Part shown: positions 37,782 through 45,869 of the stretch, in pieces
Position numbering within the stretch: the first letter of the stretch is position 1
How the letters are laid out: every line of letters starts with the position of its first letter
Source: Arthrobacter cupressi
GTDB lineage: Bacteria; Actinomycetota; Actinomycetes; Actinomycetales; Micrococcaceae
Length of the DNA: 64,000 nt
Direction of reading: 5' to 3'
Assembly (NCBI RefSeq): GCF_900099975.1
Contig: NZ_FNEI01000002.1
Location: forward strand, 348,427 to 412,426
Translations under genes and position numbers: made by a program
Notes under the pieces: model-generated
What the model was told of the DNA's origin: nothing
Databases searched by the model: none
Seen by the model: only the letters and a program-made list of their open reading frames with translations

Positions 37782-37890
37782 ACCAATCCGCAGGGGCCCG
37801 AAGCGGCAGCAGGCCGGGCGCGCCATTGCAAGGTCCACGGCGTGTTCGTGACGAAATATTTCCCTAGGTGACTCTTCGTTTCCCGCGTCA

Positions 37891-44444: not shown

Positions 44445-44538
44445 TTTTCGGCAGGCGCGGAAGCGTCCTTGCGTCGGACCGCCAACATTCCGGTATGTGA
44501 CGCCGGATGAAGTTGCGTGACCCCGGGTTTCCACGCCG

Positions 44539-44568
44539 TTGAACGGCAAACAGGCCAGTCCCTACTGT
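44539..44568 (+). promoter_or_regulatory. Promoter of the cysteine leader peptide / sulfonate-binding gene
   Basis: -35 TTGAAC (44539-44544), 18-bp spacer, -10 TACTGT (44563-44568), then 6 nt to the leader ATG 44575. The spacing means the RNA should start at the leader ATG (leaderless). Confidence 0.75.
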
Positions 44569-44574
44569 GAATCC

Positions 44575-44631
44575 ATGACCATGACGGACTGGTCCTTGCA
44601 CGCCCTTCCAAGGCGATGTTGCGGGACCTGA
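44575..44631 (+). CDS. Cysteine-containing leader peptide (uORF)
   Basis: 18-codon ORF encoding MTMTDWSLHALPRRCCGT, too short for routine gene finding. The tandem Cys codons (44617-44622) come just before the stop and lie in the 5' arm of a perfect hairpin. Leaderless short ORFs with tandem Cys codons upstream of sulfur genes are known as cysteine-responsive attenuators in mycobacteria. ATG 44575 is used; ATG 44581 is in frame. The downstream gene is a sulfonate-type binding protein, which fits sensing of cysteine supply. Confidence 0.8.
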   Translation: MTMTDWSLHALPRRCCGT

Positions 44632-44656
44632 TTTTTTCAGCCCCGCCCGCAACATC
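44615..44656 (+). promoter_or_regulatory. Cysteine attenuator hairpin
   Basis: Perfect 11-bp stem GATGTTGCGGG/CCCGCAACATC (44615-44625 with 44646-44656). The 5' arm contains both leader Cys codons; the leader stop is in the loop. The 3' arm ends 3 nt before the Shine-Dalgarno AAAGGA (44660-44665) of the next gene. Model (inferred): a ribosome stalled on Cys codons keeps the hairpin open and the gene is translated; with ample cysteine the hairpin closes and blocks initiation. Confidence 0.75.
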
Positions 44657-44671
44657 TTCAAAGGAACCCCA

Positions 44672-45814
44672 ATGTCACAAACCCCAGAGCAGAATCCCGG
44701 CACCGTCCGCATCGTTGCCGGTGAGAGCAGCAAGCCCAAGGCCGGCCGTGGCCTGAAGGTGGGCATCGCGGTCGGCCTGGCCCTGCTGATAGGCGGCGGC
44801 GCCGCTGTCGCTTCCGTGGTCGCCGGCAACAACAACGCCGCCCCGGCCGCGGCCGCGCCCACTCCGGCGGCGGAGCTGCGGCTGGGCTACTTCGGCAACG
44901 TCACGCACGCCCCGGCCCTGGTGGGCGTCAGCAAGGGGCTGATCGCCAAGGAACTGGGCGCCACGAAGCTCACCACCCAGGTCTTCAACGCCGGCCCGGC
45001 CGCGATCGAGGCCCTGAACGCCGGCGCGATCGATGCCACCTACATCGGCCCGAATCCGGCCATCAACTCCTTCGTCAAGAGCGGCGGCGAGTCCATCCGG
45101 ATCATCGCCGGCGCCGCCGCGGGCGGCGCGCAGCTGGTCGTCAAGCCCGGGATCAGCTCCGCGGCGCAGCTCAAGGGCAAGACCCTGGCCTCCCCGCAGC
45201 TGGGCGGCACCCAGGACGTGGCGCTGCGGGCCTGGCTGGGCAAGCAGGGCTACAAGACCTCCACCGACGGCAGCGGGGATGTGAACATCAACCCCACCGA
45301 GAACGCCCAGACCCTGAAGCTGTTCCAGGACGGCAAGATCGACGGCGCCTGGGTGCCCGAGCCCTGGGCCTCCCGCCTGGTGCTGCAGGCCGGCGGGAAG
45401 GTCCTGGTCGATGAGAAGGACCTCTGGGACAAGGGCGAGTTCGTCACCACCGTGCTGATCGTGAGCAAGAAGTTCGCCGACGAACACCCCGGGACCGTCA
45501 AGGCCCTGCTCAAGGGCCACGTGGCCTCGGTCGAGTGGCTGACCACGGCCCCGGCGGCGGAGAAGGCCTCGGTGATCAACGCCGCCCTGAAGGACAGCGC
45601 CGGCAAGCCGCTGGCCGCGGACGTGATCGCCCGGTCCCTGAAGAACATCACCTTCACCACCGACCCGCTGGCCGGGACCTTCCAGAAACTCCTGCAGGAC
45701 GGCATCGACGCCGGCACCACCAAACAGGCCGACATCACCGGCATCTTCGACCTCCGCACCCTGAACGAGATCACCGGCGCGAAGACCTCCGCCGCCGGCC
45801 TCGGCCAGGACTAA
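44672..45814 (+). CDS. Sulfonate-type ABC substrate-binding protein, membrane-anchored, sulfur-free
   Basis: 380 residues. Residues ~27-52 form one hydrophobic segment (VGIAVGLALLIGGGAAVASVVAG) after a basic N-terminus; there is no lipobox Cys, so it is probably held by an uncleaved anchor. The body is an SsuA/TauA-like fold: RLGYFGNVTHAPALVG, LNAGAIDATYIGPNPAINSF, GAWVPEPWASRLV. It has zero Cys and only the initiator Met. The cognate permease and ATPase are not adjacent; the gene is monocistronic with its own terminator. Likely binds organosulfonates or sulfate esters during sulfur limitation. Confidence 0.88.
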   Translation: MSQTPEQNPGTVRIVAGESSKPKAGRGLKVGIAVGLALLIGGGAAVASVVAGNNNAAPAAAAPTPAAELRLGYFGNVTHAPALVGVSKGLIAKELGATKLTTQVFNAGPAAIEALNAGAIDATYIGPNPAINSFVKSGGESIRIIAGAAAGGAQLVVKPGISSAAQLKGKTLASPQLGGTQDVALRAWLGKQGYKTSTDGSGDVNINPTENAQTLKLFQDGKIDGAWVPEPWASRLVLQAGGKVLVDEKDLWDKGEFVTTVLIVSKKFADEHPGTVKALLKGHVASVEWLTTAPAAEKASVINAALKDSAGKPLAADVIARSLKNITFTTDPLAGTFQKLLQDGIDAGTTKQADITGIFDLRTLNEITGAKTSAAGLGQD

Positions 45815-45824
45815 CAAACACCAC

Positions 45825-45869
45825 AACCCCCGGCTTCCCGGGCCACCACGGCCCGGGAAGCCGGGGGTT
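45825..45869 (+). terminator. Strong intrinsic terminator
   Basis: Perfect 20-bp stem (45825-45844 with 45850-45869), 5-nt loop ACCAC, followed by TCTCTTTG. It isolates the sulfonate-binding gene from the SulP gene. Confidence 0.92.

What the first reader, a model, noticed from the sequence alone, without database searches (positions are those of the whole stretch)
44539..44672. Leaderless Cys-codon leader peptide with a perfect hairpin next to the Shine-Dalgarno of a sulfonate-binding protein
Seen: promoter TTGAAC-18-TACTGT placed 6 nt before an 18-codon ORF (MTMTDWSLHALPRRCCGT). Its two adjacent Cys codons lie inside the 5' arm of a perfect 11-bp hairpin, and the 3' arm ends 3 nt before the AAAGGA of the gene at 44672. 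Known: leaderless tandem-Cys ORFs act as cysteine-responsive attenuators of sulfur genes in mycobacteria. Inferred: ribosome stalling at low Cys-tRNA opens the hairpin and exposes the ribosome-binding site, i.e. translational rather than terminator-type attenuation, since no T-tract follows the 3' arm.
Basis: partly seen in the sequence, partly recalled or inferred. Interest (0 to 1): 0.85.

Follow-up and report, generated by a model that had tools for sequence, protein, structure and literature searches.

The report
Conserved cysteine-codon switch before sulfonate gene
In Arthrobacter, a tiny reading frame just ahead of a sulfonate-uptake gene carries a rare arginine-cysteine codon pair that recurs ahead of the same gene in four related genera, and ribosomes pausing there likely let the cell make the uptake protein when cysteine runs short.

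Summary
The sequence facts in the finding are exact: promoter spacing, an 18-codon ORF 6 nt after the -10, TGT-TGC, a perfect 11-bp hairpin, AAAGGA 3 nt further on, no T-tract. Comparison changes their meaning. The tandem Cys is local (4 of 59 distinct uORFs). Conserved is one Cys codon near the stop in the rare pair CGA-TGT: 59 of 59 uORF DNAs in the genus (collected by requiring Arg-Cys, not codons) and 18 of 19 otherwise different uORFs before the same gene in other genera. The hairpin is one of the strongest forms of a hairpin with compensatory changes in the genus, but it does not cover the Shine-Dalgarno (SD). In 39 short leaders the SD is 1% unpaired (median); synonymous recoding of the preceding codons raises the mean from 0.09 to 0.34. 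Nineteen longer genus leaders, and all but a few other-genus leaders examined, lack this masking, so the output step is not universal. Best reading: a translational cysteine attenuator with a single-Cys sensor, a new variant of the leaderless Cys uORFs of mycobacteria. No expression data were available.

The parts
44517..44532 (+). upstream box GTGACCCCGGGTTTCC, shared with the sir promoter (37868) and seen in many relatives; candidate activator site
   Evidence: 2 exact matches plus 1 with one mismatch in the window; 0.41 expected at up to 1 mismatch, 2 of 100 shuffles reach 3; relatives
44539..44568 (+). promoter TTGAAC-18-TACTGT
   Evidence: conserved in relatives; not listed by the consensus scan; start site not mapped
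44575..44631 (+). leaderless 18-codon uORF MTMTDWSLHALPRRCCGT
44614..44619 (+). rare codon pair CGA-TGT (Arg14-Cys15), proposed sensor
   Evidence: 59 of 59 distinct genus uORFs; 18 of 19 in other genera; CGA 3 of 93 Arg and TGT 0 of 8 Cys codons in four window genes
44620..44622 (+). second Cys codon TGC, lineage-specific (most often CGC in relatives)
   Evidence: 4 of 59 distinct uORFs
44591..44597 (+). P1 5' arm GGTCCTT (codons 6-8), complementary to the SD
44661..44668 (+). P1 3' arm with the SD (AAGGAACC, one A bulged in the predicted fold)
44602..44614 (+). P2 hairpin (GCC/GGC here; GCCC-N5-GGGC in nearly all short relatives)
44615..44656 (+). P3 hairpin: 11-bp stem holding both Cys codons, stop codon in its loop; inner pairs compensated in relatives
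44672..45814 (+). SsuA-family sulfonate-binding protein, the regulated gene

Best explanation
A leaderless 18-codon uORF with a conserved CGA-TGT (Arg-Cys) codon pair precedes the ssuA-type gene and likely acts as a cysteine-responsive translational attenuator. Shown by sequence and comparison: the uORF, the codon pair, its narrow distance to the SD within the genus, the SD-complementary codons 6-8, and compensated pairs in the hairpin that starts at the Cys codon. Inferred: (1) transcription starts at the A of the uORF's ATG and 70S ribosomes load there; (2) with enough Cys-tRNA(Cys) the uORF is read quickly, the leader folds into three helices and codons 6-8 hold the SD shut; (3) with little Cys-tRNA(Cys) a ribosome waits with TGT in its A site, P2 and P3 stay open, and that ribosome with the one behind it covers codons 6-8, so the SD is free and the binding protein is made. 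The second Cys codon of the window's clade would only strengthen the pause.
For: Invariance: of 140 distinct upstream regions (same-genus loci, window included), 76 have a leaderless uORF with Cys and all 76 have Arg-Cys at most four codons from the end; 28 start the binding protein itself leaderless (0 of 28 hold CGATGT in the first 130 nt); 34 have no such box (33 if weak protein matches are dropped); 2 are others. Cys15 is kept while the next codon varies (CGC 34, CAC 11, TGC 4, AGC 4, TAC 2, stop 4 of 59), so the ORF may even end right after Cys. A synonymous TGC (L163) and a changed preceding codon (ACC-TGT, L224) both keep Cys. Other genera keep Cys near the stop in very different peptides. 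Cys-to-SD distance is 43-49 nt (39 leaders) and 46-55 nt (19 leaders). SD masking by the uORF 5' half: median unpaired 0.01 in 39 short leaders, 25 of 39 below at least 95% of 60 synonymous recodings; window 0.14 against a recoded mean of 0.47, 1 of 200 recodings as low. Most codon changes there (W/R, L/F) keep GG and TT; L128 and L098 do not. P3 inner pair at nt +6: G-C 26, A-U 10, G-U 1, unpaired 2 of 39; C-G 18 of 19 in the longer leaders. Setting: sir, cysH, cysD and cysN upstream, a sulP-type gene downstream (sir, cysH, cysD named from their translations, recalled).
Against: No start-site, ribosome or expression data. The 19 longer leaders show no SD masking (mean unpaired 0.37 against 0.32 recoded, 0 of 19 below 95% of recodings), and of 18 other-genus leaders only 3 are at or below 5% of recodings, 2 of them strongly masked, so masking cannot be the universal output step. 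The window's clade is among the less tightly masked short leaders (0.14, 0.24, 0.26, 0.29 against a median of 0.01). In the model a ribosome at TGT alone barely frees the SD (median 0.01 to 0.08; window 0.14 to 0.21); a footprint reaching 17-20 nt upstream or a ribosome behind it is needed (medians 0.26-0.42; window 0.46-0.51), L001 hardly responds at all (0.26 to 0.29-0.34), and a ribosome merely sitting on the start codon frees the SD as well if it covers 20 nt (0.37) though not if it covers 17 (0.02). Constraint on CGA and on the T of TGT goes beyond amino-acid sensing. One uORF (L027 and L176, same sequence) has lost the motif. P1 shows almost no covariation.
Confidence: 0.58

Rival explanations
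1. The uORF acts through the rare codon pair itself (slow CGA then TGT), setting ribosome spacing or delivery to ssuA independently of cysteine.
For: CGA and TGT are avoided codons (3 of 93 Arg, 0 of 8 Cys in four window genes) yet nearly invariant; among 44 of 53 tRNA genes seen, the only anticodon that can read CGA is ACG and the only Cys anticodon is GCA, so both codons are read by wobble.
Against: Cys is kept through a synonymous change (L163) and when CGA is lost (L224); the regulated gene is in sulfur uptake.
Confidence: 0.14
2. Rho-dependent attenuation: a C-rich spacer after the uORF loads Rho unless ssuA is translated or a paused ribosome blocks it.
For: Spacers look C-rich; no U-tract; proposed, as a weak prediction, for mycobacterial cys leaders in PMC1262725 (cysteine section read); could serve leaders without SD masking.
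Against: The spacer is only about 40 nt; upstream regions without the uORF look C-rich as well; not tested here.
Confidence: 0.11
3. CGATGT is a DNA or RNA site for a regulator (GGCGA-TG-TCGCC is an inverted repeat in longer leaders), and the ORF is incidental.
For: Hexamer nearly invariant; inverted repeat in longer leaders.
Against: The second half varies (CGC, CAC, TAC, TGC, AGC, stop) so the repeat is not kept; start, frame and a nearby stop are kept in very different uORFs; the leaderless paralogues under the same promoter lack it (0 of 28).
Confidence: 0.08
4. The ATG inside CGATGT is an alternative start for ssuA.
For: Conserved ATG.
Against: In frame with ssuA in only 20 of 58 leaders, about one third as chance gives; lost in L224.
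Confidence: 0.01

Closest known systems
Leaderless polycysteine uORFs of mycobacteria, cysteine-responsive attenuators (Canestrari 2020; not held, not read; known here through passages of PMC9031893, PMC9094748 and PMC13236596, and passages of the earlier PMC4633059)
   Same: Leaderless uORF with Cys codons, ahead of sulfur genes; described there as translational attenuation
   Different: Those have contiguous Cys codons; here one Cys in a nearly invariant CGA-TGT pair is the conserved state. The target ssuA and the SD-complementary codons were not mentioned in the passages I saw
Candidate Cys leader peptides of cys operons in Mycobacterium and Propionibacterium acnes and of cbs in Bifidobacterium longum (PMC1262725, passages and cysteine section read)
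   Same: Actinobacterial Cys leader peptides without terminators
   Different: Runs of Cys; no conserved terminator hairpin found there; Rho suggested as a weak prediction
Leaderless leader peptides of Streptomyces lividans, e.g. metL upstream of metNIQ, which contains RCMCRRMC (PMC8079986, passages)
   Same: Leaderless uORF with Arg-Cys clusters before a transporter gene
   Different: Read there as methionine-dependent; different gene
Leader genes that raise translation by ribosome reinitiation (PMC4833913; abstract, passages, background section)
   Same: Short leader gene upstream of a protein gene in Actinobacteria
   Different: Expected at short stop-to-start distances, with a peak at 10-11 bp in Actinobacteria; here 40 nt separate the uORF stop from the ssuA start

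Membership tests
Leaderless polycysteine cysteine-responsive attenuators | uORF starts at the 5' end of the mRNA | tested here: inconclusive
   -10 to ATG spacing of 6 nt, conserved; no 5' end mapped; weak consensus
Leaderless polycysteine cysteine-responsive attenuators | contiguous Cys codons near the stop | tested here: not met
   Present in the window (2 Cys) but in only 4 of 59 distinct genus uORFs
Leaderless polycysteine cysteine-responsive attenuators | lies upstream of sulfur-metabolism genes | tested here: met
Leaderless polycysteine cysteine-responsive attenuators | downstream expression responds to cysteine through translation of the uORF | not testable with these tools
   needs reporter or ribosome data
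Classical transcription attenuator (trp type) | intrinsic terminator with U-tract before the gene | tested here: not met
   no T-tract after P3; none listed in the leader
Known RNA families (Rfam 15) | match at the gathering score | tested here: not met
   0 matches in the window

The most novel reading that the evidence does not exclude
A single cysteine codon, made sensitive by a fixed rare-codon pair (CGA read by I34 wobble in the P site, TGT read by G34 wobble in the A site), is the cysteine sensor of an attenuator shared by several Micrococcaceae genera. The sensor has stayed fixed while the peptide, the RNA fold and even the way the SD is shut have turned over, and the control appears to have been lost more than once by fusing the first uORF codons to ssuA.
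Probability: 0.35. Interest if true: 0.75.

Novelty: new variant of a known kind. Interest (0 to 1): 0.6.

Why it matters
It would place cysteine-responsive leaderless uORFs in Micrococcaceae, on organosulfur uptake, and show that a run of Cys codons is not needed. The natural series (one Cys, two Cys, immediate stop, TGC, ACC-TGT, with or without SD masking, with or without uORF) makes the codon requirement directly testable.

Tried and rejected
Tandem Cys as the conserved feature: rejected (4 of 59). The 11-bp hairpin as the SD lock: rejected, it ends 3 nt short of the SD. Alternative start at the inner ATG: rejected by frame. RNAalifold on the MAFFT alignment gave a different local structure with no covariation (0 of 11 pairs with both sides changed); the 3' part looks misaligned there, so I counted pairs from single-sequence folds instead, which chooses partners by folding and so leans towards pairing. 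Arm-swap test of P3: own arms pair better than swapped in 28 of 39 short and 10 of 19 long leaders, weak. The pattern search with up to 3 mismatches matched 118 of 206 genus genomes, but its reversed control matched freely too, so I used only sites next to the gene. A sequence-only model of promoter and leader: one strong hit in the own genome (E 3e-23, next 0.0097) and 10 of 197 family genomes, 1 of 32 genera, three of these hits ending at or near the promoter. The other-genus uORFs were found only by reading upstream of the protein. NCBIfam gave nothing for eight uORF peptides of 20-34 residues; the window's 18-residue peptide was too short to scan. Literature searches: by titles and abstract starts none of the listed papers reports this leader in Arthrobacter; a 2014 paper on sulfur-gene attenuation cited in PMC4833913 was not looked up, and the Canestrari paper is not held; neither was read.

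Rows dropped: L169 (no AGGA found) from the folding set, leaving 58 of 59; L163 was outside the 59 because its start box differs; L241 not placed, leaving 18 of 19; L208 and L236 were added by eye to the 17 found by script. Recodings used codon weights from four window genes, also for other genera.

Full report
Observation. The fold is better than all 200 shuffles both for the 116-nt leader and for the 76-nt core. The promoter is weak by consensus and the scan did not list it. The downstream gene is an SsuA-family sulfonate-binding protein. Upstream lie a sulfate-assimilation cluster read as sir-cysH-cysD-cysN (CysN by NCBIfam; the others recalled from their translations) and an alpha-L-fucosidase-type gene (Pfam); downstream lies a sulfate-permease-type gene (Pfam; below the NCBIfam sulP cut-off).

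Conservation in the genus. Of 80 loci from named genomes, 20 carry the same arrangement: promoter, leaderless 15-22 codon uORF, then the binding protein. This gave 59 distinct uORF DNAs and 52 peptides. They were collected by asking for Arg-Cys, but nothing was asked about codons; all 59 use CGA-TGT. The check without that filter on 140 distinct upstream regions gives 76 with a Cys uORF, all 76 with Arg-Cys at the end; 28 with the binding protein itself leaderless; 34 without the box; and 2 others (L173, a leaderless fusion cut by the locus end; L027, a degenerate uORF). The codon after Cys is free, including stop. Only 4 of 59 have the window's TGT-TGC: the window, L141, L119 and L001.

Beyond the genus. 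The sequence-only model finds nothing outside the genus. The protein search in 197 family genomes gives matches in 17 of 32 genera. I read the upstream DNA of 59 other-genus loci, two of which (L222, L234) show the same region. Nineteen have a uORF with Cys near its end: 17 by script, plus L208 and L236 by eye. They lie in five genera (g7, g18, g24, g26, g28), with peptides unlike the window's, for example ending MPRCRARR, RRCRAA or QRCRMC. Eighteen of 19, in four genera, have CGA-TGT; the one in g28 has ACC-TGT. Of the rest, 11 distinct loci have a leaderless binding-protein gene (9 by script, L211 and L217 by eye); in many others the gene sits directly behind what looks like cysN, and in a few no box was recognised.

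RNA. In the 39 short leaders of the genus, codons 6-8 read GGTCCTT with few exceptions and are complementary to the SD AAGGA plus two following bases, usually pyrimidines. SD unpaired probability has a mean of 0.09 and a median of 0.01. Random synonymous recoding of the codons before Arg-Cys raises the mean to 0.34, and 25 of 39 real leaders lie below at least 95% of their recodings. For the window itself: 0.14 real, 0.47 recoded mean, 1 of 200 recodings as low. Its clade is less tightly masked than most short leaders (0.14-0.29). The 19 long leaders show no masking by these codons (0.37 against 0.32, 0 of 19). Among 18 placed other-genus leaders, three lie at or below 5% of recodings; two of them, both g26, are strongly masked (L243, L244: 0.06), which suggests masking arose more than once. 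The hairpin starting at the Cys codon shows compensated pairs: at nt +6, G-C in 26, A-U in 10 and G-U in 1 of 39 short leaders, C-G in 18 of 19 long ones (partners taken from single-sequence folds). The window's stem is one of three at about -23 kcal/mol (with L141 and L119); the other short leaders range from -9.3 to -19.7.

Mechanism. Blocking the bases under a ribosome at TGT frees the SD only modestly unless the footprint reaches 17-20 nt upstream or a second ribosome sits behind it. For the window the values are 0.14 free, 0.21 with a footprint 14 nt upstream, 0.48 at 17 nt, 0.51 with the whole 5' part covered, 0.21 with a ribosome at the stop codon. A ribosome on the start codon alone frees the SD in the short leaders if it covers 20 nt (median 0.37) but not 17 nt (0.02), so how specific the switch is for the Cys pause depends on footprints I cannot measure. 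On a leaderless message a following 70S would stand there; this is inference. CGA and TGT are avoided codons here (3 of 93 and 0 of 8 in four genes). Of 53 tRNA genes, 44 were seen; they include Arg anticodons ACG, CCG, CCT, TCT and Cys GCA only, so both codons are read by wobble; the nine unseen are 82-89 nt long. That an I34-A pair slows the next codon is recalled, not tested. Constraint beyond amino-acid identity is the part I cannot explain fully.

Evolution. Several leaderless ssuA genes begin with codons resembling the uORF start (MTSS..., MTPTDRIS...) joined to the binding-protein sequence, under the same promoter. This fits loss of the attenuator by deletion, or its gain by the reverse; direction and number of events were not tested.

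Placement. It works like the mycobacterial Cys uORFs as described by papers that cite them (passages), but the contiguous-Cys feature is not the conserved state, so I file it as a variant, not a plain member.

Noticed in passing
window 37868-37883 and 37927: The sir promoter shares the box GTGACNCNNNGTTTCC with the ssuA promoter and sir itself looks leaderless (TACAGT, 6 nt, ATG), hinting at a common sulfur regulator.
   Followed up: partly
window 45094-45815 and L226 1-723: The same genome holds a second, 99.4% identical copy of the last two thirds of the binding-protein gene at the edge of another contig (C34). In L226 it is followed by an ORF start that matches the ABC ATPase start seen downstream of ssuA in L001; the window copy is followed by a strong hairpin (45825-45869) and the sulP-type gene. 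Duplication or an assembly break.
   Followed up: partly
L010, L016, L018, L173 and others: ssuA paralogues whose own start codon takes the place of the uORF start under the same promoter.
   Followed up: partly
L240, L241, L243, L244: uORFs ending RCRMC or RCRMR; they resemble the RCMCRRMC of the Streptomyces lividans metL leader peptide (PMC8079986, passages).
   Followed up: no
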